Assembly: GCA_037349105.1 (NCBI GenBank)
Contig: JAYJMM010000101.1
Coordinates: 1,178,001-1,242,000 of the forward strand
Length of the DNA stretch: 64,000 nt
Direction of reading: 5' to 3'
Source of the DNA: Limnomonas spitsbergensis
Taxonomy: Eukaryota > Chlorophyta > Chlorophyceae > Chlamydomonadales
The position numbers and the translations under genes are program-made. This document shows, one piece after another, positions 1 through 62,604 of this stretch; the first letter of the stretch is position 1, and each line of letters begins with the position of its first letter. The notes below the pieces were generated by a model that was not told where the DNA came from, did not search any database, and was given only the letters and a program-made list of their open reading frames with translations.

Positions 1-35
1 TGAGGAGGCTCCATCCTGCATACACCCTTGTCGCC

Positions 36-452
36 CCCTGTTGCAGCCTGTGTGGGATCAGCGCATTGTTTGTACATCTGCTGGTGCCTCTTGCCTTGAT
101 GATCTTGTGCTCCCTCACTCCCCCATGATGTCCCTGTGTTGATGCTCTCCATGCTGCTCCTCATGCCCCCCCTGTTGCAGCCTGTGTGGGATCAGCGAAT
201 TACTTGTACATCTGCTGGTGCCCCTTGTCTTGACAATCGTGTTCTCCAACATTCCACCGTCATGCCCCCATGATGCCCCAGTGTTGATGAGCGCATGTCC
301 CCACCATGCCCCTGTGTTGCCTCTGTTGCAGCCTGTGTGGGGTCAGCGCATTAGGTATGGATTACCAGTGCCTGTGTTGATGATCTCATTCACCATCATG
401 CCCCTTTTGCCCCTTTGTCCCCCCTGTTGCAGCCTGTGTGGGATCAGCGCAT
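36..452 (+). repeat. Four copies of the acceptor + start of NUP155 exon 433-513
   Basis: A 3' splice site (ccctgttgcag) followed by about 18 bases of exon recurs with exon-like starts at 47, 181, 332 and 433. Only the last continues into the open frame. The spacers share 'tgctggtgcc...cttga' and 'gttgatg' words, so the units are degenerate tandem duplicates of 100-150 bp. Confidence 0.85.
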
Positions 453-3400
453 CGCGGTGCCCAAGGTGAAGGGCGGCCTGCTGCACTGCAGGTTCACACC
501 CGAGGCGATAGAGGTGTGTGAACCTTTACACCTGGGGAAGAAAGGGGGGGGGGGGGGGGGGGGGGGGAGGACTTGCTGAGGTATGGTCTTGGTCCCTATC
601 TCCAGCCCTTTTAATAACGGTGCATACCCGATGGGCCCTGCTGAACGCTTGGCCGCGTGGGGCTGGTAGGGAATGACTAAGCTCAATTCCAGGTACCATG
701 CACAGCCAGGACCATGGTGCAGCCATGCTACCCTCCTATGTGAGTAGGTAGGAACATGGAACCCAGTGATCTGGACAGGGGGAGAGAGAAGATCGTATGG
801 CGGGTTCGATCCCTCAACCTTTGGGTATGGATGCCACCAGCGTTGTGTCACCAGCCCTTAGCTCCTCACTTCTTCTCGGTTGTGGCTGGTTCACGGGTTG
901 TCTCCCCCGCTCGGTTCGCTCCGCCTGGCCCTTTAAAAACATGCTGCAGGCGGTTGTGTCAGCTTAATAACGACAACTACTTGAGAGAGATACCCCCACA
1001 CTAACTAACCCCCTCCCCCCCCTCCCACACCCCTCAACCACGTAGTCGCTGCGTTCACAGCCACAGTATCTTACTCACCCACTCCCTCCCCCCCCCACCC
1101 CCCTTCTTCCAGATGCTGTGTGACCTGCTGAATTGCCTGACCACGTTCTTCAAGCCTGCCTCGAGTGCAGGCAGCAGTGCAGCTACGGGCGCTCTCCTAC
1201 GCCCCCTCTCCCTCACATGCCTCCCCTCCTCATTCCCCCCTCCCTCCAGATGCTGTGTGACCGGCTGCAGTGTCTCACTGCGTTCCTGAAGGCCTACATA
1301 GAGCGCAGGCAGCAGCGCGGCTACGGGCGCTACCCCCCGCACGGGGGCGGTCGCGACAGCTTGGCCATTGTGCTGCCAGGCGGGGGCCTGGGCGCGGGCG
1401 GTTTCTATGGCGGGGATGAGATGGGTGCGCAGAGCCAGGCGGCCAAGAGGCAACGGCTGACGCATGCCGCGATGCTGGAGGATGAGCGGACGATGCGGAT
1501 CATGTGAGGGATCAAAGGGTGTGGGCAGGGGGGGGGATACTAGCTAGGAGGGGGAGGCAGGGGGAAGGGGGTTACGAGCTAGGAGGGGGAGGGGGCGAGC
1601 TAGGAGGGGGAGGGGGGAGGCAGGGGGGGGGGGGGGGGGCGAGCTAGGAGGGGGAGGGGGGAGGCAGGGGGGGGGGGGGGGGGCGAGCTAGGAGGGGGAG
1701 GGGGGAGGGGGGAGGTAGGGGGGGGGGGGGGGGCGAGCTAGGAGGGGGGAGGCAGGGGGAAGGGGGTTACGAGCTAGGAGGGGGAGGGGGGAGGGGGGAG
1801 GTAGGGGGGGGGGGGGGGGGGGCGAGCTAGGAGGGGGAGGGGGGGGGGGGAGTGCTGAGGTAAGGGGAGGGTTTATAGGGGAGCCGGATCATAATGCCTG
1901 AACCTATGACTCTGCCTGGGCCAACCCTGAACCCCACTTGCTGCCGCATCAGGTCATTGACCCTTAACCCTAAACCCCGCTTGCTGCCGCTTCGGGTCGT
2001 TGACCACAAGCCTAAACCCCAAACCCTAAACCCCACTTGCTGCCGCTTCAGGTTCTTGACCACACGCCTGAACCCTTAAGCCTTAACCCCACTTGCTGCC
2101 GCTTCAGGTCGTTGACCACACGCCTAAACCCTTAACCCTAAACCCTTAACCCCACTTGCTGCCGCTTCAGGTAGTTGACCACAGGCCCAAACCCTTGACC
2201 CCAACCCTAACCCCCACCTGCTGCTGCTTCAGGCCGTTGACCACACGCCTAAACCCTTAACCCTTAACTAAAAACCCTTTACCCCCTTTGCTGCCGCTTC
2301 GGGCCGTTGACCACACGCCTAAACCCTTAACCCAACACCCCATTTGCTGCCGCATCAGGTCGTTGAGTGCACGCACTTGTGAAGCGTTGGCTCTGTTCCG
2401 CCTCCTTTCTGCCAACAACTTGGGCAGGCTGGCAACTCGACTAGACAAGCAGGCACAGCGATATCTGGGCGACCTGGTGAGAGGGGGGAGGGGGAGGAAG
2501 GGGGGGCAGGGAAGCAGAGGACATGGGACAGGAAGGGGGCAGGCATGAATACATATGTCAATACAAAGGAATGTAACATATGAATAAGTGTGTGGATTAA
2601 GTGTGGAAATGGTGTGTGAATAAATGTATAAGTACCGGTAGAAAGAGATGAATATATAAACAAGTGTGCGTTGATTAAGGGAGCCTGTTTTGGCCAAAGT
2701 ATGGGACACAGCTACTGGACAAGGGGCAGAGAGGCAGGGACAGGGATCGACAGGACTGAGATGTCTGGGCGATCTGGTGTAAGGGGTGGACTGGGAGAGG
2801 GTTTCCAGTGTGATGGCAAATTGACGAGATTTGAAGAGAAGAGCGGGTGGGGAGGGGGCTTGGCTTTTCCCTGCTGCGCGTGTGGGGGGTGACGGCCCGA
2901 GAAAAAAGGGCCATCTTGACCTTAAAATTGTGGGCGGCCTCGCCCTTTTGTTGTTTGTCTCAATGACCTGGCTTGGGTTTAGTCAACCCTGCATCCGCTC
3001 ACTCCCCCCTCCCCCACTCACTTTGTGTGTTGTCCACGAATGATCTATGTGTGCACCAATGCAGCCCCCTTCTTGCATGTACGTTGTTATTTTATATGTC
3101 TTGCAAAGAAGGTCCCTTTTCGTTTGCTCCATTCCCGTTTTTTTGTCCTCCCTTAACTTTACACCCTACACCCGTAACCCGTAACCCTACACCCTTAACC
3201 CTTAACCCTACACCCTACACCTTTATCCCTTAACCCCACACCCTTAACCCTTAACCCTAAACCCTAAACCCTTAACCCTACACCCTTAACCCTACACCCA
3301 TAACCCTACACCCTACACCCTGCACCCTACACCCTTAACCCTACACCCTTAACCCTACACCCTTAACCCTTCACCTGGTGTGTGTGTGTGTATGTGCAGA

Positions 3401-6400
3401 CTGTGCGGGATTTGGTGACGGAGGCTGCTGGCGAGGCGGCTGCCGCTCAGCTCATCAGCGCGCTGGTGACGGACCACCTGGAGAGTAGTGGCGGGTCCGG
3501 GGCGGGGCTGGGGGCAGCGTCTGCGGGCGTGGAGGCGGCGGCGGCGGCGCTACAGCGCGCCTGCCCTTCGTATTTCAAGGAGGCGGACCGCGCCTTCTAT
3601 CAGGTGTGGGGGGGGCAGAGTGGGGGGGCGAGGTCACTTTGCCGCTGAGATGCGTGGAGAGGTCACCTTGTAACAGATGGAGATGGAGCAGCTGGAGTGG
3701 GGTGGGGGAAGTGAAAGGCAAGTGGGGCGGTGGGGAAGGACGGTTCCGCGCCAAAGAATACGACAGAATAGGATGGACGGAATACCATCTCTGTGTGAAG
3801 CGGGTAGCTGGGTGTCTCGCGCGCTCCTCTGTTGAATGACGCGCACAGACATGTTAAATTGGCAGACCCCTGTGTGGATGGGGCGAACCACTTGACCGCC
3901 CTACGGCCAGTGGCCCAAGCAGGAGGGCTTGCTGCACCAAGTCCCCTCGGCAGTTGGCCGTGATGTAGCTGAAGCGTAGCTGCATGGTAGCTGAATTGTA
4001 GCTGGATTGTAGCTTAAGCACCCCAGAATTTGTATCGTGCTCCCCTTCCCCAAATGCATGTTGATCATGTTTTTTATTTGTTCTTAGATCCAGCCCTGAT
4101 CATGCGCCTTGGCTCCAGGCTTGACTTCGCTTGTCGAGGGAAAGCGAACTGTAAATAGCGGGTCATCTAGAATAGACATCTGGCGCCAGACGTCTGGCTA
4201 GCTGGTTAGCCTGTTGACGTCTACTGGCAAACCCTCTGTCAGCAACCGAGGCCCTCCTTCATCCTTGATCCTGAAAGACCAAACTGGAGGCTTCAGACGA
4301 TTAGTGCTGTGCCGATTACGGTCCTTACGGTGGCTGAATTACATGGCTTTGAGTTTGAATCACTGTAATTGCAAGGCGCTCTACTTTTACCAGGAAAAGA
4401 CTGTGCTTGGGTACACCATTCCTGAAATACCGTGCCGCATTGTGTGCCGTTTTATACGCTTGACTGAAACTGTACATGTTGCACACATGGGCAGTACATA
4501 TACCGAGCTTACACAGAAAAAAACATTGAGAGACTCTTCTTAATGAACCTAGGATCGTTAACGACGGAAATGGAGGCTTCATATATCGTGGACTACTAGA
4601 ACAAGCCTCCCTTACGGCATCATATTGGCTGGACTGAGCTCCTAGATCAAGCCTCCCAAACAAGTTCCCCTCCTCAATCTTCAATGCTCAACGACGAAGC
4701 TGGAGGATTATTTGGGGATTTTTGACCCCTTCAAATGATTGCTGTCGCGCAGCCTTGTGCCACAATGCAGTCAAGGACGTATGAGGTTTTCCTGGGACGG
4801 GTAGGGACGGGTAAGGGGGGGGGGCACTCGCACGCTTTGGGTGTAACAGGCAGGAAAAAATAATGGGGACACACGCACACAAATAGGTTTATTTTGCTGG
4901 TTCTTCTCACAGGAGGTACCCCGTCACCTGTTGGAGCGCCTGACCCTAAACCCTGATACGAGCTTTTTAGTGTCTTGACCCTGAACCCTGATGCGCCTGA
5001 TACGTGCGTATTAGGGTTAAGCTGGACCCTAGACCATATACCCTAGTATCGGATCTGATCCATTTGAATGACTGCCGTTGCGCAGGCCTCCGCGAAGTTG
5101 AAGCAGGCTGAGGCACTGGTGGGCGCTGCGGAGCGGGATGCACTGACACGGGAGGCAGTCACACAGGTATGGCAGTTGCAGTTGCTTCAAGTTGGGAAGT
5201 ATAAGTTGGTTGAAGGTGGTTGAAGGTGGGAAGTATAAGTTGGTTGAAGGTGGGTGTGGGTGGGAGTACTGGTTGTCGTGGGTGGGTGCAGCGTGATGCA
5301 CTCACACGGGAGGCAGTCACACAGGTATGGCGGGTGCAGTTGGTTGGTTGATGTTGGTTGAAGTTGGGAGCGGGGGGGGGGGGCTTGGGGGGCGCTGCAG
5401 AGCGTGACACACACACACAGGAGGCGGTCACACAGGTATGGCGGGTGCAGTTGGCTGGTTAAAGCTGGGATGTTGATGTTGGTTGAAATTGGGAGCAGGT
5501 GGGAGTGCTGATCGGCATGAATGGGTGCTGCAGAGCGGGACGCATGCTGCAGGAGGCAGCCTCGCAGGTATGACGGTTGCATGAAGTTGGGATCGGTTGG
5601 GAGTCCTGGTGCGGCAACTGCTTTCAACGTTCTGAAATGTGGATGCTTGAGACAGCCCCCACAAGGGTGCGCACCCTGACCCGCATGAAGGAGCTTGCCC
5701 TTGCCTCTTGCATCCATCACCAGCAGCATCGCCCTTTTGGTTTCAGCGTTTCGAAATTTCGATGCATGATACAGCCCCGTGTGCCCCACTTGGGCACGCA
5801 CCCTGACCCGCATGAAGGAATTTGCCCCCGTTTCAACGTTTTGGAATTTCGATGCTTGATACAGCCCAGTGTGCCCCCACGACAGCGCGACCCTGACCCG
5901 CACAAAGGAGCTTGCCCCCGCCTCTTGCATCCATCACTAGCAGCATCGCCCTCTTGGTTTCAACGTTTTGGAATTTTGATGCATGATACAGCCCCGTGTG
6001 CCCCCACGACAGCGCGACCCTGACCCACATGAACGAGCTTGCCCCCGTTTCAATGTTTTGGGATTTTGATGCTTGAGTCAGCCCCGTGTGCCCGGCCATG
6101 AGGGTGCGCACCCAGACCCGCATGAACAAACCTGCCCTAACTTCTCGCATCCGTCACCGGCAGCATCGCCCATTTGTTGTTCCCCGCCTGGTCACCCCGT
6201 CCCCCTTAAACAATCCTCCGCTCCCCCGCCCTGCTGCGTCAGCTGAGCCTGATGCCACCTGTCACCTGAGTAGATAGATGCTCCGACCTGTCCTCGTATT
6301 CCCCGAGGGATTGTTCCACCTCAACCACCTCCCCCACCTCTCCCCCACCCTGCTGCGTCAGCTGTGCCTGATGCCACCTGTCACCTGAGTAGATAGATGC

Positions 6401-9400
6401 TCCGACCTGTCCTCGTATTCCCCGAGGGATTGTTCCACCTCAACCACCTCCCCCACCTCTCCCCCACCCTGCTGCGTCAGCTGTGCCTTGTGCCCCCCCC
6501 TGTCACCTGAGTGGCTACCTGCTCCGACCTGTCCTTGTATTCCCCGAGGGATTGTTCCACCTCAACCACGTCCCCCACCTCTCCCCCACCCTGCTGCGTC
6601 AGCTGTGCCTTGTGCCCCCCCCTGTCACCTGAGTGGCTACCTGCTCCGACCTGTCCTCGTATTCCCCGAGGGATTGTCCGACCTCAACCACCTCAACCAC
6701 CTCTCCCCCACCCTGCTGCGTCAGCTGTGCCTTGTGCCCCCCCCTGTCACCTGAGTGGCTACCTGCTCCGACCTGTCCTCTGATTTCCCGAGGGATTGTC
6801 CCACTTCAACCACCTCACCCACCTGACCCACCTGACCCACCTGACCCTCTTCACCCACTTCACCCACCTCACCCCCACCCTGCTGCCTCAGCTGTGCCTG
6901 GTGCCACTGGCCTGCAACCTAGACTTCCTCACAACCCAGCTGGCGTACCTGCGGTGCTACGAGGTGAGGGGTACGACGGTACATGTACTGCCCGGCAGGA
7001 CAACGGTAATGGAAGGGATGCACATGGGTGGGGTGTATTGCTGAATTGTGAATGAAGAAACTGGATGGAGTGTGTAGCTGAATTGTAGATGACGTTGTGG
7101 ACGGGCAGTGTAGCTGTATTGTAGCTGAGGCATGGGAATGGGGTGCGTAGCATTGCAGCTGATTCGTAGCTGGAATTTTGCTTTGCTGGGAATGAGAAGT
7201 GCGCTGGAAAATGATCACCCGTGTGTGTGTTTGCAGGGTCTGGTCGAGCTTCCGCTGCGGGCGGCCGCCGCTGCTGACCCCGACGGCCTAGCCTCACGCC
7301 CTGAGCTGGGCCCCGACTGCGAGCAAGCCCGCGCCCGCCGCGCCGCCTGCTACCAGCACATCGTCACCACGCTCACGATGCTCATCAACGGGCCGCCAGC
7401 GGCGGCGGTGGCGGGAGCAGGAGGAGCAGGAGGAGGAGTAGGAGCGGGGACGGGCCCCGCGGGCACGGTGGGGATTACCCCCGCGGGGCCTCAGCCGCTG
7501 ACTGCGGCGGAGAAGGTCGCGTACAAGACGATCATCCTTAAGGTGACGATTTAACAATAATCGGGATGTACTGTACCAGTAGTGGGGAAAGTAATGGTGA
7601 AGGGGGCCACAGGGGAGGATTTGAAAAGGAGGGAGAAGGGAAACATTTTATGGTTCCAAAGGCGGGCCGAGACCCCTAAACCCTGAACCCTAAACCCTGA
7701 AATGTGATTTTAAGGCGGGGCTGAGATGGCCGCGTTTAAGACGGGTCGTTAAATGATTGGGATGTCTGTAGAAAGTAAATGGAGGAGGGGCGCAGGGGGA
7801 TTTGAATACGGTAGGAGGAAGGCGAGGGGGGACACTTGTGTTGGCTTCATGGCGGCTGGGAGGGCCGAACACAAGACACTCACTCGCAGGGTGGCGATTT
7901 GATAGAAATGAGGACATCAAAGAGAATGATACCTCCACCATAAACATTCACCATGGTAAGTTTGTGTGGGGGGGGGGAGAAGATTCGAAGAGAAGGCTGA
8001 GGAAGGGGAATTCTTTATATATCTGGCTGCGGCGGCGGAGCGGGCTGTGTGGGAGGCGGTCGTTATGGTGTTGAAGCACCGCCTTTTCTCAACTTGCCAT
8101 ACGGTATACTTGATTCGACTGCAATTAGGTACATACTGGTAGTTGCTAACAAATTGGCAATCTGCACGTCCGGAAATTCGACGGCAGTGGGCACATCCTG
8201 TGTGGAGGAGGATCAGGAAATATCTGTTTGTTTTCATAAAAGTTACCCATAAATAAATAAATAAATAAATAAAACACAGAACAAAAAACTGGATTTTGAA
8301 TGCAGTGGGCATCCTACGGTATGTAGGGGACGATTTGTACATCCCTCCCTCCTCATGCAGTACATCCCTCCCTCCTCATGCAGTACATCCCTCCCTCCTC
8401 ATGCAGTACATCCCTCCCTCCTCATGCAGTACATCCCTCCCTCCTCATGCAGTACATCCCTCCCTCCTCATGCAGTACATCCCTCCCTCCTCATGCAGTA
8501 CATCCCTCCCTCCTCATGCAGTACATCCCTCCCTCCTCATGCAGTACATCCCTCCCTCCTCATGCAGTACATCCCTCCCTCCTCATGCAGTACATCCCTC
8601 CCTCCTCATGCAGTACATCCCTCCCTCCTCGTGCAGATGGTCTGCAAGTCCACCGACGTGTTCTTCCACCACGTGCTGTACAGCGCCCTTGTAGAGCTGG
8701 GCCAGTCGCAGCTGCTCCTCTCCCTGGACGCCAGCTCACCCTACCTGGAACGCTACCTGGTGGAGGAGGTGGGTGATGAGGTGCAGGGTTTAGGGGGAAG
8801 AGTGGAAACCCTATTTGGCTGAGGAGGTGGGGGCTTAGGGTTCCGGGTATGGGGATACCTAATTGGGGCATTTTACAGGCTGCTACTCACCCTACCAGTT
8901 CCTAGACCCTAAACCCTAGACCCTACCGGTTCCTAGACCCCAGACCCTAAACCCTACCAATTCCTAGACCCTAAACCCTACAGTTTCCTAGAGCGCTATT
9001 TAGTGCAGGACTTGGGTGGGCAGGCCTGGGGTTTAGGGCCGCAGGTGATAAGGGTGCAGGGTCCAAGAGTTTAGTGAACCTTTTTTTTCTGGTTACGGGG
9101 CCAAACGCAGCTGCTGCTCACATCTCTGGATGGAAACTCATGTACAGAGGTCTCTAGCAAAAGAGGGTGGGGGGATCCCCCAGGCTTGGGGTTTTGTGTT
9201 TTAGGGTTTTAAGGGAAAACTTAATTCGGCGTGGAGGTAAGGGTAAGGGTTCAGGGTTATAAGTGTGGGGAAAGCCCTACTTCGGCGTGGAGGCAGGTGG
9301 TGAGGGTTTAGGGGGGAGTCTTTCAAACCCCGTCTGGTGGAGGAGGGAGGTGATCAGGGTAGAGGGTTTGCATGAAATCCTTAATCTTTAACTATTCGTG

Positions 9401-46000: not shown

Positions 46001-49000
46001 TGGGGGGGCTGGTGCTTGAAACCGGAGGAGATTCAGCAGCCGGAGATCAGTAGACACAGGTGCGTGTCGCTGTTTATTTGAAGGTTGCTTCAGCTTCTAT
46101 TTTGAGGGGTACTTCATTTTACTATCTTTAGGGGTGTTTTAGGTATTATTATCTACATTACGGCCTGCAGCCGGGGGGCCCTGGTGCCTGAGGCCTGAGG
46201 AGATTCAGCAGCTGGAGATCAGCAGCCACAGGTGCTGTGCCACTATTTATTTGAAGGATGCTGCAGCTTCCATTAAGCTACATCACGGCATGCAGCGGGG
46301 GGGGGGGCCTGGTGCCTGCAGCCGCAGGAGATCCAGCAGCTGGAGATCCGCAGTCACAGGTGCGTGCCACTATTTATTGAAGGGTGCTTCAGCTTCTATG
46401 AAGCTATATCATGGTCTGCAGACGGAGGGGGGGTGGGGGTCTGGTGCCTGAAGCCTGAGGAGATTCAGCAGCTGGAGACCAGCAGTCACAGGTGTGTGCC
46501 ACTGTCTACTCGAAGGGTGCTTCAGCTACTGTTTTCATGGGTGCTTCAGGTATTATTTCAAAGGTGCTTCATAAACTATTTTGAAGGGTGCTTCAGCTTC
46601 TATGAAGCTACATCACGGGCTGAAGCCGGAGGGGGGATGGGGGTCTGGTGCCTGAAGCCGGAGGAGATTCAGCAGCTGGAGACCAGCAGCCACAGGTGTG
46701 TGCCACTGTCTACTCGAAGGGTGCTTCAGCTACTGTTTTCCTGGTTGCTTCAGCCTCTGTTAAGCTACATCATGGCCTGAAGCCGGTGAGGCCTGGTGCA
46801 GGAAGCCCTGCTGCTTTGGACACCAGCCATAGGCTAGTGAAGGTTTAGTCCCCATCGGCCTAGCGGTGGCTGCCCTGCTGCCTGCCTTTGGTGGTCCGGT
46901 GTGCGCATCGCTTCACTAAGACATGAGTGTTATGCGTGTGTGCCGATCATCTTGACACTTCCTTTTGTGTCTGGCATGTGCACAATGCACATGGTTGTCA
47001 TGTACAGGACACCCTCGTCTTGTTTAGGGATATCAGCCTGGCCTGATTGTGGGCCATGCCCCCTCTTGCTTGCGTACTTTCAAATGCCGTGGGCCAAATG
47101 CTGTGCCATTGCGCCGTATTTCATCTATTGTGTACGTAATTGGTAAAAGTAGCTGAATTTGCCTTGGAATTACGGTGACTGGAACTCAGCTACGTAATAC
47201 AGCCACCGTAATCGGCACAGCACTGATAATAATACGTACAGTGGAGTTGTGTTTTCCGTCACAATTTTCCAGATCCACAATTTCTGTCAATTTCCGTCAA
47301 TATCCTAGATTCACAATATCCGTCAATTTCCTGGATTTCCGTTTCCCGTCATAGTTCCCCCCTAGATTTGCATGTCAGGCGAATCTAGGCTAGGCCGGAC
47401 TAATACATGATCAGTTGATCACTTCAATCCATGATCAGTTGATCACTTGGAGCATGCCATGCGAGCTTCCTTCTTTTCGTATTGGCCTGACACAAATTTG
47501 AATCTGCCCTTCACAGGCCGAACATCTGCACCGCCATTTTTATCTTTATGTGACCAACATTTTACTTTGTACATGCCCGTCATAAATTCAAAATCCGCCC
47601 TTCGCAGGCTGATTTTCTAAATCGCCATGATCGGTTGATCACTTCAATCGTCATGTGAGCAACATTTTATTTTGTATTTGCCCGCGAGTTTGCCCGTTAT
47701 AAATTTAAAATCCGCCTTTCGCAGGCCGAACTTCTGCATGGCCACGATCAGTTGATCACTTCAATCGTCATGTAAGCAGCATATTAATCTGTATTTGCCC
47801 GTCATCAATTTAAAATCCGCCCTTTTCAGGCCGAACTTCTGCATCGCCATGATCACGCGGATCGTCACAAGGGCCGGCATGCCCACTGAGCTTGTGCTGC
47901 GGGTGGATGAGAACATCAGCAAGCTTCTGCAGTCAGTCAGTGCGTGCGAAAGGTGTGAACAAGAGTGTCACAGGGTGGGACCAGCCCTGATGCATGCTGT
48001 ACGATTGTGGGGTGTCAGGAGAGCCTATATGTGGTGTGAACAAGAGTGTCAAAGGGTGGGACCAGCCCTGATGCCTGCTGTACAATTGTGGGGTGTCAGG
48101 AGAGCCTATATCTGGTGTCAGCGTCACTCTTGGTACAGGAAGTAAGAAAGTCACGTGGTGTGTGGCCCGCATTGGACTTGCTTATTAGTGCAGGAAGACA
48201 TTAAGCTAGGTGGGGCGTCGACTGCATGGCTGGCAGGAGACGTACCTTGGGGACCTCACGTGGGAGGTAAGGGGAGAGTTCAGCTTATCTTAGGAATAAG
48301 GGGAGAGTTCAGCTTTGAGCCTTTGGCGGAGGTCTGATCCCCGCCTTTGCTCTCTCGTGCAACCCTGTGTGCTTATTTTAGTTTGCACGTGATCACGTTT
48401 GGCCGGCCGATGGGCATGCTGCTCCTGGTCGTCGGCTATGAGGACATAGCACATCTTTGAGGCCGTGAGTAGAACATCATGGAGGATGGCAGAAACAGGC
48501 TGCTGCTGTGGCATGCTGCTGCTCACGTTGTGCTGGCCCCCAGCCTCTGCCCCTCCCCCCACAGTCGAAATTTGCCCCCCCCCCCCCCCCCCTCCAGCCA
48601 CGCCCACTCCCGGCAGGCCGTAGCCGTCGATTCTTATTCAGTTGTGCATCTGGGTGGAATTTCGATTGGGTGGAACGTGTTGTGCTGTCTTTCCAGATTG
48701 CATTTCCAGTGCAAAGCTTGTCGGGGGTTTCAAAACGCTTAGCTAGCAACTGCGACATATCTCCTGGTGACCTTTGATTCTGAGGATTTTGAGCCTGGCC
48801 ACAAGCGGGGTCGCCAGCCAGAGGCCGGAGTGTAGCTGACATGAAGCTGAGCCACGAAAAAAATAAGCACTGCACCTGGCCTTCATTTCCTCCACAGGAT
48901 CATCAACACACCCATTCCGGTTTCATACACCCGACACACCTCGAGATTCTTGGTGAGAGGGATTCAAATACTGGCGCACAAATGTAGCCAAGTTCTTGGT

Positions 49001-50442
49001 GACAGGGATTCAAATACTGGCGCACAAATGTAGCCAAGTTCTTGGTGACAGGGATTCAAATACTGGCGCACAAATGTAGCCAAGTTCTTGGTGACAGGGA
49101 TTCAAATACTGGCGCACAAATGTAGCCAAGTTCTTGGTGACAGGGATTCAAATCCCCTGCTCCTGCTCGCCTTTTCTCAGCTGACAACGAGGGCCACGAG
49201 CGAACCTGTTTTGTGTTGTCTCTGACGACCGGTGGATGTGGATCCCTGATCCTGGCTGGATCTAGAATCTCCTGATCCTGGCTGGATCGAGATGCTCCTG
49301 ATCCTGGATAGATCTAGAATCTCCTGAGCCTGGATGGATCTAGAATATCCTGATCCTGGATGGATCTATAAGCTCCTGATCCTGGATGGATCTATAAGCT
49401 CCTGATCCTGGATGGATCTAGAAGCTCCTGATCCTGGATGGATCTTGAAGCTTCAACCTCTTGTGCCTTTGGCCCTGCTGTGCCACTGCTGCCCCGAGCT
49501 GTGCCCTGCTGTGCTGCTGCTGTACCCTGGGCATCTTCGTCGGTGTCAGTGACATCGACTATTTTATGTGACAGGGCCTTTCCTACGTGTATTGTGTGAT
49601 CCCTTTCTGCTGCATATCCCCTTGTTGTGCAGATGGTCTGGCTCAGCTGCCTACCCTTCTCTTTGTGGCACTACTGCGGCTGGGCCATGGTACCGATTGC
49701 CGGGCTGATCAGCTTTGTGCTGCTGGGCATTGAGGAGATTGGAGTCTACATTGAGGAGCCCTTTTCTTTACTGCCTCTGGAGAACCTGAGCGACAAGCTG
49801 ACGGACAGCGTGAAAGGTGTGTGGGTGGGCGGCATTGTTTGCCTCAGTGCGCACTGGATGAGCTGGCGGGACGTTAGGCAGCTGCCTTTGGGCCATTGGG
49901 GATCAAAAACTAGGCTGTAGGCCCTGGCAAAGGGGCTTGCTGTGTCAGGTGGCCATATGTCCTTCTGTGATGTAGCCAAAGTAGCTGATTCACCTGTTTG
50001 TAGCTGAAATGTGCAGCAGGTGAATCACCCTAAATAACCAGTCGTGCTAGATGCAGGCTCCGTAACTGGCAAAGTCAATAGGCTGGTTAGCAGGCAGGCA
50101 GGCAGGCAGCTCTGGTTTATCTGTTTATCTTTTGGGGGCGTTCTTAACCGTTTTGGGTGTGCAGGCCCCACATGCTTCTCCTGGCATGCCCTGTAGTCTG
50201 TCAAACAAATGGATTTTGAAATCCGAGTCAGGGCTGAGAATGGATTTTGAAATCCGAGTCAGGGCTGAGAATCTCACAGGGTCAAAAGCTGACGATTGCC
50301 TTCTCGCTTGCCACCAAAGCCCTTTTTAAATGTGCATTGTGACTCTCTGATTGCAGACATGATATCTGAGCACAAACGGATAGAGGCATACGCCGCTGCG
50401 TTCGACAAACAGCAACAGCATGCAACATCCACGTCTGGCTAG
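43044..50442 (+). CDS. Bestrophin-like anion channel (UPF0187/VCCN1-type), 377 residues, complete
   Basis: Exons: 43044-43217, 43307-43350, 43443-43531, 43685-43761, 44523-44645, 45627-45805, 47830-47952, 48898-48952, 49633-49816, 50357-50442 (TAG); 1134 nt with every phase consistent. The first in-frame ATG is 43044. Residues 1-58 are Ser/Arg-rich and transit-peptide-like, suggesting a chloroplast location (inference). Family blocks in order: WRRHRSSTRFIRHL, YFNHF, SFALSLLLVFRTNASYARWQ, HRPNFC, VDENISKLLQSVSACER, NTPIPVSYTRHTSRF, then IEEIGVYIEEPFSLLPLE around residues 323-340. Land-plant VCCN1 and algal BST proteins of this family carry chloride or bicarbonate across the thylakoid membrane; which applies here is not decidable. 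Two introns (after 43350 and 44645) have GC donors. Exons 4, 6, 7 and 8 are followed by tandem copies of their own donor junctions. Confidence 0.93.
43745..43965 (+). repeat. Copies of the donor junction of bestrophin exon 43685-43761
   Basis: The exon end 'attgagcccatgcag|gtagg' is followed by degenerate copies 'agagcccatgca..' at about 43778, 43790, 43855, 43900 and 43938, spaced by 'ttggccataaat' / 'atggtcatatag' words. Confidence 0.85.
45020..45125 (-). repeat. Dispersed repeat family 2, copy at 45.0 kb
   Basis: The reverse complement reads 'aggtttggtccgcattggc' and 'gcagtggtggctgcccagc', matching 31160-31262 and 46790-46895. Confidence 0.6.
45430..45545 (-). repeat. Dispersed repeat family 2, copy at 45.4 kb
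   Basis: The reverse complement reads 'ggtcaaggcttggatctcaa' and 'cagcccagtggtggctgcct', collinear with the copy at 45020-45125 about 400 bp away. Confidence 0.6.
45760..46785 (+). repeat. About six further copies of the donor junction of bestrophin exon 45627-45805
   Basis: The exon end 'ccggaggagattcagcagct' plus 'ggagatcagcagacacag|gtgcgtg' recurs near 45893, 46022, 46195, 46325, 46455 and 46660. Each has an intact or near-intact GT donor and the downstream 'actgtttatttgaaggatg' and 'gcttcagct' sequence. Confidence 0.95.
46790..46895 (+). repeat. Dispersed repeat family 2, copy at 46.8 kb
   Basis: 'aggtttagtccccatcggcc' plus 'tagcggtggctgccctgc', matching 31160-31262. Confidence 0.6.
47505..47850 (+). 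repeat. Four copies of the acceptor + start of bestrophin exon 47830-47952
   Basis: 'ccctt..caggccgaacttct' plus 'gcatcgccatgatca' occurs at about 47508, 47599, 47715 and 47821 (the used site). The intervening 'tgatcagttgatcacttcaa' is palindromic (tgatcagttgatca) and also repeats at 47408 and 47430. Confidence 0.93.
47950..48130 (+). repeat. About 85-bp duplication starting at the donor of exon 47830-47952
   Basis: 'gtgtgaacaagagtgtcaca' at 47953 recurs as 'gtgtgaacaagagtgtcaaa' at about 48035, with the following ggtgggaccagccctgatgc and ggggtgtcaggagagcctat also repeated. Confidence 0.93.
48940..49160 (+). repeat. Five copies of the donor junction of bestrophin exon 48898-48952
   Basis: The exon end 'agattcttg|gtgaga' becomes a 47-49 bp unit 'caagttcttg|gtgacaggga' plus 'ttcaaatactggcgcacaaatg', repeated almost perfectly. 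Confidence 0.95.
49240..49455 (+). repeat. About 28-bp array upstream of bestrophin exon 49633-49816
   Basis: Seven to eight units of 'ctcctgatcctggatggatc' plus 'tagaag'. Not obviously junction-derived. Confidence 0.9.
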
Positions 50443-51740: not shown

Positions 51741-52900
51741 GGTGTCGAACAGAACTCTGCAGCTACCACATGACCCCCGAGTTGGCAGCAAAGGCAGGCA
51801 GCCCCTCAGCCTGGCGCAAGTGCTGAAGTAGGCTGGACTGTATCCTGCTCCGAAGACAGTGTGGCGGCCGAAGGTGACCGGTGGCCCACACCATATCTCT
51901 GTAGTTGGCCGCAGGCGCTGCATAGATAGCTGCTAGTCGGATGCGCATCGGCAGATGATGCCTCAAACGCACCCTGGCGGCCATGTGGCTAACACAATGC
52001 ATCGCGGTAGCCAGAGGCGCCTCTCTACCTTGAATGGCTTTCCTCATTCTGCCGCTTTCGTGCGTAATTTGAATTATTGGACAAGCTTCAGCACTGTCCT
52101 ATCCGAGCCGTAGAAACATACGCTTGCTGCTGGCGTTGCGCAGCTAAGCGGCTGCTAAACTCCAAAATCTCTGCCTTGCTGACGTTGAGGAGCAATTTGA
52201 CCGCCGCATATTCATGCAGGGCATCTAGCATGCGCTGCAGCCCTGCCGGGCTGCTGGCCAGTATGGAGAGATCATCCACACACAAGGGGCACCTGAGTCG
52301 CCACCCTGCCCCCAGCGCAACGCCCTCTGCTGGGCATTGAGTGGGCATTGGGCTGCGATCTTGCCCGGCAGGTCGCTGATATAGAGGCTGACGAGGAGGG
52401 GGCCGAGGGGGCAGTCCTGCGTGATACCACGGGTGCAAGGCCAGTGCTTTAAGGGCCATCTGTAAGCGTTTATACAGCACCGCTATATACTTATATAGCG
52501 CTTGTATAGCGCGGCACATGCCTGATGGCATGTGAAGGTGCTCTGACAGATGCCAGAGCTACTCCTGTGGCACAATCATAGGCCTTGGTGAAGTCCACAA
52601 AGGCCACTTGCAGCTTGCCACGGCCTTTGGCTGACCGCTGTGCATGGACTGCATGCCTCAAGAGGCAAGCAGCCTGAAGCGTGCTACGGCGCCGCTGAAA
52701 TCCAAACTGCTCAGGAGGGATATGCGCGTCGAAGCGCGCCCACTGATCAGTGATGGCGGTGAGCATATGCTAGCATACAGCCGGTACAGCACGCTGGTGA
52801 TGGCAATGGGCCGGTAGTTACCAGGGTCAAGGTGTTGCAGTCCTGTAGAGGTCGAGGTCTGGGGGCACCTGCAGGTGTCTGTATGGACCATCGATCGGAT
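51740..52900 (-). pseudogene. LINE-type (non-LTR) reverse transcriptase fragment
   Basis: Read on the - strand from about 52870: DPGNYRPIAITSVLYRLYA, then EQFGFQRRRSTLQAACLL and VAFVDFTKAYD (RT motifs typical of non-LTR elements), then CPLCVDDLSILAS (the Y/FxDD box, here CVDD) and LNVSKAEILEF. A tail MRIRLAAIYAAPAANYRDMV follows. The pieces lie in different frames, so there are several frameshifts. The endonuclease is absent and the element is 5' truncated at about 52900. Dead copy. Confidence 0.85.
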
Positions 52901-54989
52901 TGACTGGGCACGGGATCAGCCAGTCAGCAATGAGCATCCGTGTCAGCTTTTACATATAGGGCACATAACTACAAAATGTCGTTACTCGCAAGCATGTGCG
53001 TGACATTCCTGCCTTCATGCTGCTGCTTTTGTGTAGCTCTGCAGATGGGTAGCAGTGCCTCAGTCTCGTAGAGCATGAACAACATCTACCAGGAGTTTCA
53101 TCAGTTCTGACAGTTGCCTCAGCCCCTGACTGAAAACTGAGCTTGCGCGTGCCTGCCTTGGGCGACCTGGGCGGTCCCTCCTCACCCAGCAGCAACTTGA
53201 GCATGCATGCACCTACACGTCACTCAAGACTTTGTGTGCCCTTGGTTGCACCAATGCCCTCAGCCTAGAACCCATGACCTCTATACATCGCTTAGGGGAT
53301 ACGGGGGCCATCAGTCCAGACAACTGAACATACGTTATGCACCCCACCAGTGCTTATTTTAAGGATTTAGAAAAACCTTCATCTTGTAGTGCCAGCGTTT
53401 TTTCTTCTAAAAGCTCAGATTTATAGTGAATCCGAGGCGAAGCCTCGGTGGGGTGTGTGTGGGGGGTGCTGGAGCCCCCCCGCCACGTGCCAAAAGGTGT
53501 AACTGACATATATATGTTCACATTTACGACTTATTACCCCCCAAATCCAATTAAGTTTTTAACTTTGTGTGTTATGTGCAGCCGACGCCATATGCACTGC
53601 TGGTTGACACTTCAATTCGTTTTCACAGTCCTCCCATTCATCCGTCTTGGGGTTGCTTGTGGGAAGAACGGGATCGCTTTGGGAATTCTACACGATGACT
53701 TTTAATATGAACATGTAAACAAGTACAAGACTAATGTGTGAAAGAAAGCGTACAAAGAGCGAACCAGGCATTTCTCAAGTATTCGTTGTACGTGTACACA
53801 TCTTAACCTAAAAAGGCGAGCAGCATCATCACGCGCCGTGTTGTCATACGTCATGACAATGCTGCCTATAGATGACTCGTGCGGTTTTGTTCCGCATTCT
53901 CATAAGAAAAGGCACATGCCAGCTTCACATTAAACACCATGGCAAGGTTTGCTAAGAACAAAAGGGAGCATTTAACATAGCAATTTGCGTAAGAATTAGA
54001 AAGTAAAAAATACCACAAGTCTGGTGACCACCTTCAAAGCTCCCCCTAACCTTCCCGCTAACATTCAGTGACAAATACTCTCCGAGTGTAGCGCCTGATC
54101 ACTTTTTTGTTCGGCTGCAACACCGAGTCAACAGCACTACAGCAGCTTGAGAAAATTGTTTCCGCACAAGCAAGACGGTAAACAACATTGCTCGCATGCT
54201 CCAATGAAGCAAAGCCACAAGTGTTGTCAGAAGGTCTTATTAAATATCCCGAAAAACCCAAAGAAAAGCAATGAGAAAAGGAAGTTCCGAAATGCATTTC
54301 GAAATTGATGCGTCCATTCGTCATTGTTGCTAGCTAGGGTGGGGGTGCAGACAGAAATATCCCCCCCCGGAAAACATACAATACTTGCTATGTATACACC
54401 CTGTTATTTGTAATCAATCCCTTCTAGGATAAGGGTGTCGTCCAATTAATCTCCTGCAATCTTATAAAGTTCTGGAGGTGAAGGCCACCAGTCTTGGAAC
54501 GACAAATTTTCAAGCCTGTGTTAAAAAAAATTCAAACATCAAAAGTTTTCAAAGTGAAACGTAGCTTAATTGAAATGCCGTGACGGACTCCCATCCCATG
54601 CACAAGCTATGAGGTAATTCCCTGTTAGGAATACGGAAGCTAAATCAGTGCGCGTGATTTCAACTTTAAATTAGTATGTGTTAAAGGGTGTGGATGAATT
54701 TGGCTGCAGGCTGGCCTTCAACACCTCCACCATAAAAAGCGTCGTGCCTCTGAGGCACACCTCCCCCCTCAAGTCTTCCCCTCCTTCTTCTTCACCACCT
54801 GCCTTCAGTTTCTTTTTCTCCCAACCAGACACTTGGGCGCCCACGCAGCCAAGCCTAAATGAGCAGGAGCCAAAGGCGTCATGTCATCGCCTCAACTCCC
54901 CCTTCTTACCACCGGGACCTCCTCAGCCGGCTACAGCCACCCTCTAGTCCTCATCCCTCACCCCTCATCATCCCTCCCCCCTTGTGTCC
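52901..54989. other. Intergenic region with two GC-rich hairpins
   Basis: Mostly AT-rich and without a recognisable gene. CCGAGGCgaaGCCTCGG (53432-53448) is a perfect 7-bp stem with a 3-base loop, followed at 53461-53480 by GGGGGgtgctggagCCCCC-type pairing. 54058-54324 is open on the - strand without known motifs. 54750-54990 is CT-rich and is the downstream flank of the - strand membrane protein gene. Confidence 0.5.
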
Positions 54990-57900
54990 TCATCCCTCAT
55001 CGCCTCCCTCTTTTGACGCCTTGAGCTTCCTGACCACCGTCCTGACCAGCGCCCACATGAGCACCCAAGAGGCCGCCAGCTGCACCCCGATCAGCAGCAG
55101 CTCCAGAACCACCATGGAGGTCTGCACCGAGCCGGAGGAGCTGTAGAACTGGAGCGTCAGGATGCAGACACACACACAAGTCTCCAGGCTCGAGGAAAAT
55201 ACTTCCACCACGTACGGCGTCATAGACACCTGCAAGCCAAACAGCAACGTGCTTTTAGTCATGAGAAATGGGTCCAAGGCTTGGGGTCCGTCGAGGTCCG
55301 AGATATGGGTCCGAAATTTTGGGTCAGCCATTTGGGTCAGTTTCAGATCTAAGAAATGGCTCTGAGGCTTTGGGTCAGCCTTTTGGGTCAGCTTAAGGTC
55401 TAAGAAATGGCTCTGAGGCTTTGGGTCAGCCTTTCGGGTCAGTTAAGGTCTAAGAATGGCTCTGAGGCTTTGGGTCAGCCTTTCGGGTCAGTTTAAGGTC
55501 TAAGAATGGCTCTGAGGCTTTGGGTCAGCCTTTCGGGTCAGTTTAAGGTCTAAGAATGGCTCTGAGGCTTTGGGTCAGCCTTTCGGGTCAGTTTAAGGTC
55601 TAAGAATGGCTCTGAGGCTTTGGGTCAGCCTTTCGGGTCAGTTTAAGGTCTAAGAATGGCTCTGAGGCTTTGGGTCAGCCTTTCGGGTCAGTTTAAGGTC
55701 TAAGAATGGCTCTGAGGCTTTGGGTCAGCCTTTTGGGTCAGTTTAAGGTCTAAGAATGGCTCTGAGGCTTTGGGTCAGCCTTTTGGGTCAGCTCAAGGTC
55801 TAAGAATGGCTCTGAGGCTTTGGGTCAGCCTTTTGGGTCAGTTTAAGGTCTAAGAATGGCTCTGAGGCTTTGGGTCAGCCTTTCGGGTCAGTTTAAGATC
55901 TAAGAATGGCTCTGAGGCTTTGGGTCAGCCTTTTGGGTCAGTTTAAGGTCTAAGAATGGCTCTGAGGCTTTGGGTCAGCCTTTTGGGTCAGTTTAAGGTC
56001 TAAGAATGGCTCTGAGGCTTTGGGTCAGCCTTTTGGGTCAGTTTAAGGTCTAAGAATGGCTCTGAGGCTTTGGGTCAGCCTTTCGGGTCAGTTTAAGGTC
56101 TAAGAATGGCTCTGAGGCTTTGGGTCAGCCTTTTGGGTCAGTTTAAGGTCTAAGAATGGCTCTGAGGCTTTGGGTCAGCCTTTTGGGTCAGTTTAAGGTC
56201 TAAGAATGGCTCTGAGGCTTTGGGTCAGCCTTTCGGGTCAGTTTAAGGTCTAAGAATGGCTCTGAGGCTTTGGGTCAGCCTTTTGGGTCAGTTTAAGGTC
56301 TAAGAATGGCTCTGAGGCTTTGGGTCAGCCTTTTGGGTCAGTTTAAGGTCTAAGAATGGCTCTGAGGCTTTGGGTCAGCCTTTCGGGTCAGTTTAAGGTC
56401 TAAGAATGGCTCTGAGGCTTTGGGTCAGCCTTTTGGGTCAGTTTAAGGTCTAAGAATGGCTCTGAGGCTTTGGGTCAGCCTTTTGGGTCAGCTTAAGGTC
56501 TAAGAAACAGGTACTAAGTTAAGGCTGCTAGCAACAGGATGCTGTCACCCCCCCCCCCTCCCCCCTCAATTAATCAATCAAAGCGGCCCGGCCGGGCAGA
56601 AAACACTCTTAGCCCCAAACTGGCATGGGGCCGGCCTAAAACCGCTCACCTGCCTGAGCCATGATAATGGCCCTGGCTGCTTTGTTTCCTGGACCCTCCA
56701 GCCCCCCACAGAGCGTAGCTTCCATTCTTCACTCATTTCTTCATCCCTCTCTTCATTTCTTTCTCACCTGCAGCCTGATGTAGGCCATGGCCCTGGCTGC
56801 GATGTTGCCTGATCCCTCCCACCCCCCACACAGCTTATCTATTGATCTTCCTTTCTTTCTTTCTCACCTGCGGCCTGATGTAGATCAGATACAGTGTATA
56901 CACCAGCTTGGTGGCCAGAAGCGCGCTGTTGATGCCGATCGCCCCTGTCGAGCCCGGCTGCATCCCTGCGCCCTGTTGAACGCCCACCAGCACACCACAC
57001 ACCGCCGCCTCCACAAGGATTGCGATGAAGAACGTCGTTGACAGCATGTCGGTGGTCCGGTGATCCTCAAAGAGAGGGCCCAGGCGATCCTGGAGGGAGG
57101 GTTTTGTGAAGGGGCATGAGGGTTCAGGGTTAAGACGATCCTGGAGAGAGGGTTTGTGAAGGGGCAAGAGGGTGCAGGGTTAAGACGATCCTGGAGGGAG
57201 GGTTTGGAAAGGGGCATGAGGGTTCAGGGTTTAAACTTTCCTGGAAGGAGGGTTTGATAAGGGGCACGAGGGTTCAGGGTTGAGACGGTCCTGGAGGGAG
57301 GGTTTGTGAAGGGGCATGAGGGTTCAGGGTTAAGAACGATCCTGGAGGGAGGGTTTGATAAGGGGCATGAGGGTTCGGGGTTTAAACGATCCTGGAGGGA
57401 GGGTTTGAAAAGGGGCATGAGGGTTCAGGGTTAAGACGGTCATGAAGGGAGGGTTTGGGAAGGGGCATGAGGGTTCAGGGTTAAGACGATCCTGGAGGGA
57501 GGGTTTGGGAAGGGGCATGAGGGTTCAGGGTTAAGGCGATCCTGGAGGGAGGGTCGGGAGGGTGCAGGATTTAGTCAATCCTAGACAGAGGGCCTGGAGG
57601 TTTTAGGGTTGAGACAATCCTGGAGGGAGGGCCGGGGGGTCAGAGTTCAGGGTGAAGGGTTAAGACGATCCTGGAGGGGGGGTCGGAGGGTATTAGGGTT
57701 TAGGGTTTCGACGATCCCGAACCTTCCTATCAGTGTGGAGTCTTCTCACCTTGAGTTGCACCTTGGCCAGGTCTAGCTTTAAATCCTGATCCAAAATTCC
57801 AGCAGCGGGCAGAACAGCTGATGCTCCCTCTTGGTTGTCAGATCCGTCCACTGGCTGTGGCAGATCTAGATCCAGACCCAACATCCTGCGATCCAACGCC

Positions 57901-62445: not shown

Positions 62446-62604
62446 GAAATTTTGCAGGAGGTATTCCCGGGTCCCCCTCCTGTCTCCAAATGTCATGTGT
62501 GCACCGCAGTTGAGAACAATGTGTCTGACTGGCTCTGATTCAAGTGTTCGTTACAAATCACTCGATCATACGTCAGGAAGCTAGAGTTCATCAAGTCAAG
62601 TTGT

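What the first reader, a model, noticed from the sequence alone, without database searches (positions are those of the whole stretch)
1..57725. Introns built from tandem copies of their own splice junctions, in five unrelated genes and on both strands
In NUP155, the Cys-rich gene, the kinase, the bestrophin and the multi-pass gene, arrays in most long introns are anchored on the exon-intron boundary. Donor-side units copy the last 15-50 exon bases plus GT. Acceptor-side units copy the pyrimidine tract, AG and the first 10-30 exon bases. Copies range from nearly perfect (23-bp at 8339, 49-bp at 48940) to very worn (11010-11500), so the process looks continuous. Chance placement cannot explain so many arrays centred on junctions. 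This suggests a general intron-growth mechanism, perhaps transcription- or break-linked tandem duplication tolerated only where one functional junction copy remains. Many decoy splice sites result.
Basis: seen in the sequence. Interest (0 to 1): 0.93.

Follow-up and report, generated by a model that had tools for sequence, protein, structure and literature searches.

The report
Introns filled with copied splice junctions
In a green alga, introns have grown by short tandem duplications that often copy the exon edge with its splice site into the intron, a habit so far described in bird microchromosomes; it looks like blind duplication filtered by splicing rather than a mechanism aimed at junctions.

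Summary
With exons fixed by spliced alignment to homologues, 11 of 24 donors and 6 of 24 acceptors of NUP155 and bestrophin introns have near copies of the junction inside the intron. In 14 dynein heavy chain genes on 11 other contigs the figures are 42/204 and 18/208; foreign junction words recur in under 1%. So it is widespread, though the window is richer than the sample. Array share rises from 4% of sequence (150-300 bp) to 78% (four introns above 1.5 kb).

"Anchored on junctions" is an over-reading. A donor is covered about as often as a random point of its intron (45 seen, 45.5 expected), acceptors half as often (22). Best reading: position-blind duplication, purged in exons, tolerated at donors, partly purged at acceptors. 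Some duplications show microhomology. A 1.7- to 2-fold donor excess remains possible. AGGT intron birth is not supported.

It closely matches "sequence stuttering" in chicken dot chromosomes (PMC12954441). The assembly nearly matches Limnomonas spitsbergensis in size and has its contig number.

The parts
433..21122 (+). NUP155 gene, C-terminal part (18 exons modelled): 433-513, 1250-1503, 2359-2476, 3400-3603, 5086-5166, 6892-6963, 7237-7542, 8637-8768, 10265-10401, 11472-11586, 12598-12698, 13357(or 13333/13342)-13460, 14723-14815, 15590-15727, 16383-16537, 17013-17096, 19997-20161, 21032-
   Evidence: spliced alignment to 7 homologues; 15 of 17 donors and 14 of 17 acceptors shared by at least 5 of 7
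43168..50385 (+). bestrophin gene (10 exons modelled): 43168-43217, 43307-43350, 43443-43531, 43685-43761, 44523-44645, 45627-45805, 47830-47952, 48898-48952, 49633-49816, 50357-; the 5' end is not settled
   Evidence: Pfam Bestrophin_2 hits in three exons; spliced alignment to 5 homologues
5117..5581 (+). NUP155 donor 5166: junction copied at +158, +269, +401; 16-50 exon nt
8744..9757 (+). NUP155 donor 8768: weak, spaced copies (best +58, +577, +871, 2 mismatches of 14)
10374..10983 (+). NUP155 donor 10401: 69-bp array, 7 junction copies, 28 exon nt; the six copies printed share differences from the exon copy
11555..11959 (+). NUP155 donor 11586: 4 copies at +91, +173, +264, +352, 30-32 exon nt, GTGGG donors intact
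12664..12914 (+). NUP155 donor 12698 (donor supported by 3 of 7 references): one spaced copy at +193, 35 exon nt
13436..13713 (+). NUP155 donor 13460: copies at +87, +172 and worn +251, 12-25 exon nt
15722..15831 (+). NUP155 donor 15727: one copy at +48, 6 exon nt
17068..18262 (+). NUP155 donor 17096: 77-bp array, 15.5 units, 29 exon nt, printed copies with CTGCAG|GTGG
43750..43924 (+). bestrophin donor 43761: copies at +38 and worn +158, 10-12 exon nt
45759..46731 (+). bestrophin donor 45805: copies at +126, +254, +554, +686, +890 with 40-47 exon nt, all with CACAG|GT
48947..49153 (+). bestrophin donor 48952: 46-bp unit, 4 copies, 6 exon nt (TTCTTG|GTGA)
1098..1267 (+). NUP155 acceptor 1250: copy at -137, 18 exon nt
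1922..2366 (+). NUP155 acceptor 2359: about 56-bp units, 7 copies (up to 3 mismatches) of tract, AG or GG and mostly 8 exon nt
6221..6907 (+). NUP155 acceptor 6892: 122-bp array, 5 copies of tract, CAG and 14-16 exon nt
12406..12615 (+). NUP155 acceptor 12598: copy at -153, 18 exon nt and 39 intron nt
47501..47855 (+). bestrophin acceptor 47830: copies at -105 and -313, 21-26 exon nt
8337..8636 (+). 23-bp x 13 array flush with NUP155 acceptor 8637; copies tract and AG, no exon bases
34639..39159 (-). kinase gene part (gene-finder exons 39159-38948, 37536-37414, 36668-36571, 35372-35202, 34792-34639); junction copies at donors 38947 and 35201 and at the acceptors ending introns 38947..37537 and 36570..35373
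   Evidence: Pfam kinase hits in two exons; exon ends not confirmed by a homologue
55017..57065 (-). multi-pass gene part (gene-finder exons 57065-56868 and 55229-55017); junction copy at donor 56867 (+100)
   Evidence: exon ends not confirmed by a homologue

Best explanation
The introns grow by frequent short tandem or near-tandem duplications (unit about 20-140 bp, median 56) that arise without regard to where the splice junction lies, probably through microhomology-mediated slippage or break repair, and then expand and decay. Duplications inside exons are purged. Those whose unit straddles a junction are kept if one copy still splices, so the exon edge, the splice site and the intron edge get copied into the intron. 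At the donor the true site is the first one transcribed and the copies lie downstream, so such duplications survive about as often as any other. At the acceptor the copies lie upstream of the true AG and would be met first, so about half are lost. Shown: exon boundaries, copies, spread over 12 contigs, the fade into exons, the asymmetry, the length correlation. Suggested by the data: microhomology. Inferred: the molecular source, neutrality, and the splicing-based reason for the asymmetry.
For: Junction words recur in 53/228 donors and 24/232 acceptors against 22/4380 and 12/4404 for foreign words. Donor coverage equals that of random intron points: 45 seen, 45.5 expected from per-intron means; acceptors 22 (206 introns). 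Copies fade into the exon: 28/153 at the donor, 15/153 at -20, 1/153 at -48. Exons are poor in local repeats (0.015 of probes in predicted dynein exons, 0.049 in window exons) against confirmed introns (0.195 and 0.320). Array share rises with intron length, Spearman 0.57, p 1e-19, n 213. In two-copy duplications the match runs at least 4 nt beyond the unit in 12 of 31 against 3.9% in a control (the control used exact extension, the observed value a mismatch-tolerant one, and in another 12 of 31 the match is 1-10 nt shorter than the unit). Units show no clear reading-frame preference at donors (16/15/10 mod 3). Similar local repeats occur in some regions without a verified gene (0.244, 0.252, 0.108) but not all (0.003, 0.028), so the process is not confined to the verified introns.
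Against: Array left edges are about twice as dense in the last 60 exon bases as deep in the intron (56 arrays; 2.6-5.9 per kb in bins from -60 to 0, 1.9-2.6 per kb at 20-250), and 35 donor-spanning arrays are seen where a plain position-blind count expects 20.9 (p 0.003). The fit is restored only by assuming that exon-anchored copies stay recognisable twice as long. That assumption is not borne out at the 46 junctions with two or more copies, where junction-to-copy divergence (0.196) is about equal to copy-to-copy divergence (0.204). Without it the acceptor shortage is not significant at array level (16 vs 20.9, p 0.17). The point comparison depends on the yardstick: against length-weighted (pooled) interior coverage of 0.316 donors (45/206) are below, and with 24-base words 29/206 stand against 0.257. 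Decoy GT and AG are not depleted (79/82 and 34/38), so nothing shows that decoys are harmful. About half of the arrays at identity 0.9 or more are spaced, not adjacent (115 of 221).
Confidence: 0.66

Rival explanations
1. Junction-directed duplication: something at 5' splice sites (co-transcriptional R-loops, polymerase pausing, spliceosome-linked breaks) makes tandem duplication more likely there, so that arrays are seeded at donors.
For: Array left edges peak 20-40 nt inside the exon (27 arrays, 5.9 per kb against about 2 in the intron); 35 donor-spanning arrays against 20.9 expected under plain position-blind placement, p 0.003; the window's two genes are richer still (11/24 donors).
Against: Point coverage at donors does not exceed the intron interior (45 vs 45.5). 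A two-fold longer life of exon-anchored copies gives 35.4 expected against 35 seen. No matching peak on the exon side of acceptors (0.5-2.9 per kb). Exon extents vary (quartiles 17-33 nt), so breakpoints do not sit at the splice site.
Confidence: 0.2
2. Intron birth by tandem duplication of an exonic AGGT segment (Rogers/Hellsten model): the introns began as copies of exon sequence and the arrays are what is left.
For: Exon-derived sequence carrying AG|GT is repeated inside introns; one NUP155 intron shows a weak donor/acceptor resemblance (shift +1262, 3 mismatches of 14).
Against: Over 213 introns the donor junction resembles its own acceptor junction no more than a random one (8.26 vs 8.30 of 24; 0 introns reach 16, 0.2 expected). 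Introns of 150-300 and 300-500 bp hold little array sequence (4% and 12%).
Confidence: 0.03
3. The junction copies are functional: decoy or dual-specific (AG|GT) sites that regulate splicing or let the intron be removed in steps, kept by selection.
For: 33 of 53 donor-spanning introns have a downstream copy that keeps AG|GT, so use of that decoy would leave a GT..AG mini-intron (median 76 bp; 10 of 33 under 60 bp) that could be spliced again. GT is slightly better kept than neighbouring positions (79/82 vs 877/970, p 0.07). AGGT dual-specific sites in tandem repeats are spliced in human UBC (PMC10809524, passages).
Against: Exons ending in AG are not commoner among spanning donors (42/53 vs 133/175, p 0.71), and copied acceptors less often have an exon starting with GT (3/24 vs 75/208, p 0.02). 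GT retention is not significant. No RNA data here.
Confidence: 0.07
4. Artefact: wrong exon boundaries or assembly errors.
For: No call positively supports it. Boundaries come from protein alignment, not RNA; near-perfect arrays can have wrong copy number in noisy long-read assemblies (general knowledge).
Against: Most window junctions are shared by at least 5 references; in four dynein genes a gene finder and spliced alignment to a paralogue agree exactly on 135 of 216 introns (the paralogue proteins were themselves gene-finder products); many copies are diverged, which assembly expansion would not produce (inference); chicken analogues were checked in raw reads (PMC12954441, section 7 part 1).
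Confidence: 0.02

Closest known systems
'Sequence stuttering' / 'exon stuttering' of avian dot chromosomes (PMC12954441, Genome Biol Evol 2026; abstract, part 1 of section 7 and passages read)
   Same: Introns filled with imperfect local tandem copies of tens to hundreds of bases; the lateral part of an exon with its donor or acceptor is copied through the intron; exon part median 36 bp (25 and 23 here); exons stay intact; potential alternative sites result; DNA-repair mechanisms suggested.
   Different: There: birds, dot chromosomes, GC-rich genes, exon copies found in 190 of 5,572 dot introns (3.4%) in a BLAST screen with exon parts of 20 bp or more, intron-length alleles shown in the population. 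Here: a unicellular green alga, genes on 12 contigs, intron GC 0.557, copies at 23% of donors and 10% of acceptors by a laxer test (14-mer); donor/acceptor asymmetry and placement measured; population variation not testable.
Tandem-repeat density near intron-exon junctions in Chlamydomonas reinhardtii and Volvox carteri (PMC3887541; passages and section 10 read)
   Same: Green algae; introns have the highest tandem-repeat density; repeats lie towards intron ends, especially in the algae.
   Different: Position statistics only; the passages and section read do not describe units that copy the junction or exon edge.
[quoted passage not shown] Rogers and Hellsten as cited there) and by repeat expansion in Cryptococcus (PMC2395259, passages)
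   Same: Tandem duplication of DNA carrying splice signals; one functional junction is kept.
   Different: Creates a new intron; here existing introns lengthen and the donor/acceptor self-similarity of that model is absent.
Dual-specific AGGT splice sites in tandem repeats, human UBC (PMC10809524; passages read)
   Same: Repeated AG|GT sites in tandem units.
   Different: Coding repeats with RNA evidence of use; here intronic copies with no RNA tested.

Membership tests
Sequence stuttering (PMC12954441) | Intron repetitiveness from local, imperfect tandem blocks of tens to hundreds of bases | tested here: met
   427 arrays in 286 introns; unit quartiles 36-100 bp in the 384-array set; 29,687 of 109,977 bp of 213 confirmed introns in arrays
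Sequence stuttering (PMC12954441) | Occasional involvement of the exon edge with the adjacent splice site | tested here: met
   53/228 donors and 24/232 acceptors; 41 and 19 spanning arrays, median exon part 25 and 23 nt
Sequence stuttering (PMC12954441) | Extensive intraspecies intron-length variation | not testable with these tools
   one assembly only, no reads
Sequence stuttering (PMC12954441) | Association with GC-rich genes on a special chromosome class (reported association, not a definition) | tested here: not met
   genes on 12 contigs; intron GC 0.557, fetched dynein regions 0.555-0.582
[quoted passage not shown]
   24-nt identity 8.26 own vs 8.30 random pairs, n 213
Dual-specific splice-site arrays | The same AGGT copies are used as 5' and 3' sites in RNA | not testable with these tools
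   33 of 53 introns have the motif in place; no RNA

The most novel reading that the evidence does not exclude
In this lineage 5' splice sites are real hot spots of tandem duplication, and donor copies are tolerated because each carries AG|GT: if a decoy is used by mistake the leftover is a GT..AG mini-intron that can be removed in a second step. Introns could then grow from their donors almost without penalty, whereas acceptor copies have no such repair route.
Probability: 0.15. Interest if true: 0.85.

Novelty: new member of a known kind. Interest (0 to 1): 0.58.

Why it matters
Why introns lengthen is an old question, usually answered with transposons. Here about a quarter of the confirmed intron sequence, and 78% of the four introns above 1.5 kb, lies in local duplications, and the exon edge, held by selection, serves as a reference copy: each junction copy records a duplication whose source is known. 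That allows rate, breakpoint chemistry and splicing constraint to be measured base by base. A second, very distant lineage with the trait reported in bird dot chromosomes suggests a general process not tied to extreme GC content or special chromosomes, and the donor/acceptor asymmetry is a natural experiment on how the spliceosome chooses between near-identical sites.

Tried and rejected
Intron birth from AGGT duplication: tested and not supported (test B). Reading-frame preference of units (a sign of decoy use): none clear at donors (16/15/10); 5/4/10 at acceptors, too few to judge. Purging of decoy GT/AG: none seen. Homogenisation of intron copies relative to the exon copy: no significant difference (0.196 vs 0.204, 46 junctions, p 0.16), although single arrays (10401, 48952, 6892) show it by eye. 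Enrichment of AG-ending exons at copied donors: none; GT-starting exons at copied acceptors: fewer, not more.

Short introns (<150 bp) in the four dynein genes: of 24, 10 had a confirmed donor and 5 of these 10 donors were copied. I left introns under 150 bp out of the main counts because they are few and because some short predicted exons look like pieces of arrays (my reading of the exon list). They may therefore hide a real effect.

Rows dropped before the main counts: gene-finder introns without any end confirmed by a paralogue, and introns under 150 bp. 286 introns with at least one confirmed end gave 254 of 150 bp or more; each side was counted only where that end was confirmed: 228 donors, 232 acceptors. 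14 of the 16 or so dynein loci seen were used (no returned locus covered the C36 and C120 genes); 10 of the 14 only over the 3-6.5 kb returned by the search.

Led nowhere: pfam scan of 10.5-20 kb found no nucleoporin domain; PDB search of one raw frame; a third homologue search failed because I gave a query locus too short for dynein-sized candidates; a first orientation of minus-strand loci was wrong and was corrected; the first gene-finder run lost genes after a stop codon and was fixed.


Full report
WHERE IT IS. The window is C101:1178001-1242000 of a held assembly of 260,226,709 bases in 124 contigs. The published Limnomonas spitsbergensis assembly has 260,248,090 bp in 124 contigs, GC 54.15%, mean intron 788 bp and 33% interspersed repeats (PMC11228838; outline with abstract, part 1 of the results section and passages read). 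I take it to be that snow alga (inference). The parts I read do not mention junction copies in introns; the nuclear intron figures there are lengths and counts.

EXON BOUNDARIES. I wrote a protein-to-genome spliced aligner and used homologues found. For bestrophin, five references (three named green algae, two MMETSP transcripts) agree on all junctions from 43307 to 49816; the next acceptor, 50357, is given by four of five (Pfam hits in three exons). For NUP155, seven references (five named green algae, two unnamed) give 18 exons; 15 of 17 donors and 14 of 17 acceptors are shared by at least 5 of 7, the others by 3. Exon 12 of NUP155 has an unsettled start.

THE OBSERVATION IN THE WINDOW. I counted a junction as copied when the 14-mer centred on it recurs with at most 2 mismatches in the intron or within 60 bp of it. 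Of 24 introns of 150 bp or more, 11 donors and 6 acceptors are copied, and 13 of 24 introns at one or both ends. Examples: donor 17096 with 77-bp units carrying CTGCAG|GTGG; donor 45805 with five copies of 40-47 exon bases plus CACAG|GT; acceptor 6892 with five copies of the tract, CAG and 14-16 exon bases. The three shortest bestrophin introns (89, 92 and 153 bp) have none (best 6-8 mismatches of 16 at the junction). The kinase and multi-pass genes show the same at 2 of 8 donors, 2 of 8 acceptors, and 1 of 5 donors, 0 of 5 acceptors, with gene-finder exons only.

BEYOND THE WINDOW. Dynein heavy chain genes were located by AAA_6 (89 matches, which I group into about 16 genes). Four 50-kb regions were fetched. 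A small gene finder had its coding model trained on segments conserved between the dynein paralogues. On NUP155 it found 17 of 17 donors and 17 of 17 acceptors at two of three penalty settings, but predicted 38-46 exons where 18 are known; on bestrophin it found only 5-6 of 9 donors and 6-7 of 9 acceptors. Its splice-site tables included the window's own sites, so this is not a fully independent test. It gave four dynein proteins of 3,623-4,115 aa without stops; all six pairs align in one stretch of 3,398-4,121 columns at 31-35% identity. Spliced alignment to paralogues reproduced exactly 135 of 216 introns. Ten further dynein genes were added over 3-6.5 kb each. Result: 42 of 204 donors and 18 of 208 acceptors copied; all together 53/228 and 24/232, Fisher p 2.6e-4 (in the window alone the difference is not significant, p 0.23). 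Copied donors were found in 14 of 17 sequence pieces. Junction words of other genes recur in 22/4380 and 12/4404 trials. Five combinations of word length and mismatch limit all keep the donor count above the acceptor count.

IS THE JUNCTION SPECIAL? Three views. (1) Point coverage: in 206 introns confirmed at both ends a random interior point is covered with mean 0.221 per intron, so 45.5 covered donors are expected and 45 seen; acceptors 22. Pooled over all points, which favours long introns, interior coverage is 0.316, and with 24-base words, which need 12 exon bases, donors are 29/206 against 0.257; so the donor is at or below the interior by this measure. (2) Profile: coverage runs level through the donor and fades into the exon, 28/153 at 0, 15/153 at -20, 1/153 at -48, while exons are otherwise poor in local repeats. 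A unit of length u that straddles the junction is tolerated with any exon part below u, so a fade over about one unit length is what blind duplication plus selection predicts. (3) Array starts: 56 left edges lie in the last 60 exon bases of 228 donors, about twice the density deep in the intron; on the acceptor side 26 right edges lie in the first 60 exon bases of 232 acceptors, about the interior density, with a pile-up just inside the intron. An explicit expectation from unit and intron lengths is 20.9 spanning arrays per side; 35 are seen at donors (p 0.003) and 16 at acceptors (p 0.17). If exon-anchored pairs stay recognisable twice as long because one copy is frozen, 35.4 are expected: donors fit and acceptors are depleted (p 2e-4). 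The factor of two is reasoned, not measured, and the divergence comparison at multi-copy junctions does not confirm it.

MECHANISM. Units have median 56 bp (384 arrays). Of 221 arrays at identity 0.9 or more, 106 are adjacent and 115 spaced; 52 have three or more copies. In two-copy tandem cases the match runs at least 4 nt beyond the unit in 12 of 31 against 3.9% in a control, but falls 1-10 nt short of it in another 12, and the control was scored more strictly than the data. This points to microhomology-linked slippage or end joining in part of the cases and does not prove it. Array share of intron sequence rises from 4% (150-300 bp) to 39% (800-1500) and 78% (above 1500 bp, 4 introns), Spearman 0.57; the seven introns under 150 bp stand at 17%; redundant copies make up 22,430 of 109,977 intron bases. 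This supports growth by duplication. The introns are not wholly built from junctions: 41 and 19 arrays span a donor or acceptor out of 427 arrays in the set (which includes introns under 150 bp).

DECOYS. 44 of 53 copied donors have a GT-intact decoy and 31 one that scores within 0.5 of the true site or better; 22 of 24 copied acceptors keep AG. GT and AG are kept as well as other positions. How the first donor is chosen among near-identical ones is open; first-transcribed, first-bound is my inference, and so is scanning for the first AG as the reason for acceptor loss. Stepwise removal through AG|GT copies is possible in 33 of 53 but untested.

KNOWN OR NEW. A paper of February 2026 describes the same thing in chicken dot chromosomes under the name sequence stuttering, including copies of the lateral part of the exon with its donor or acceptor. 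Tandem repeats near intron ends in Chlamydomonas and Volvox were reported in 2013. In nine literature searches of the held open-access library, the listings and the passages I opened showed no report of junction copying in an alga; most listed papers were not opened, the Haematococcus paper only by passages, and subscription papers were not searched. I therefore file it as a new member of a known kind, in a far lineage and at high frequency, with placement and asymmetry measured here.

LIMITS. No RNA, one assembly, a sample dominated by one gene family, boundaries from protein alignment, and no relative's genome compared.

Noticed in passing
window 60503-62414 (+) and 62493-63991 (-): The same protein sequences occur on both strands (60503-60973 + equals 63521-63991 -; 61500-62414 + resembles 62493-62975 -), so the end of the window holds two related pieces in inverted orientation; that they are retroelement gag is my unaided reading.
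   Followed up: no
introns of the sample (110,190 bp with separators): Telomere-like CCCTAAA is about ten times commoner than in two-base-block shuffles (80 vs 7.7) and TTTAGGG five times (32 vs 6.3), with more of the C-rich form on the sense strand; it hints at telomerase-linked break repair or at a spreading minisatellite.
   Followed up: partly
window 3965-4019, 23516-23591, 30036-30075, 34925-35206, 39199-39253: An 11-bp unit like TGTAGCTGAAG recurs as short arrays, or inside a longer unit, in unrelated places of the window, on either strand.
   Followed up: no
window 43351 and 44646: Two of nine bestrophin introns start with GC (GCAAGC) in all five spliced alignments.
   Followed up: partly
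window 52575-52757 (-) and ORF 52088-52558 (-): Reverse-transcriptase-like trace: a Pfam RVT_1 match at 52575-52757 far below its cut-off (E 0.17); the neighbouring ORF looks similar by eye.
   Followed up: no
acceptor side, 0-40 bp upstream of exons in the sample: Array right edges pile up just inside the acceptor (10, 12 and 17 arrays in the bins 0-8, 8-20 and 20-40 of 232 acceptors; 3.7-5.4 per kb against 1.7-1.9 at 100-250), as in the flush 23-bp array at 8337-8636.
   Followed up: partly
acceptors of the sample: About a third of exons start with GT (78 of 232), but only 3 of 24 copied acceptors do (p 0.02), so AG|GT acceptors may be less tolerant of duplication.
   Followed up: partly
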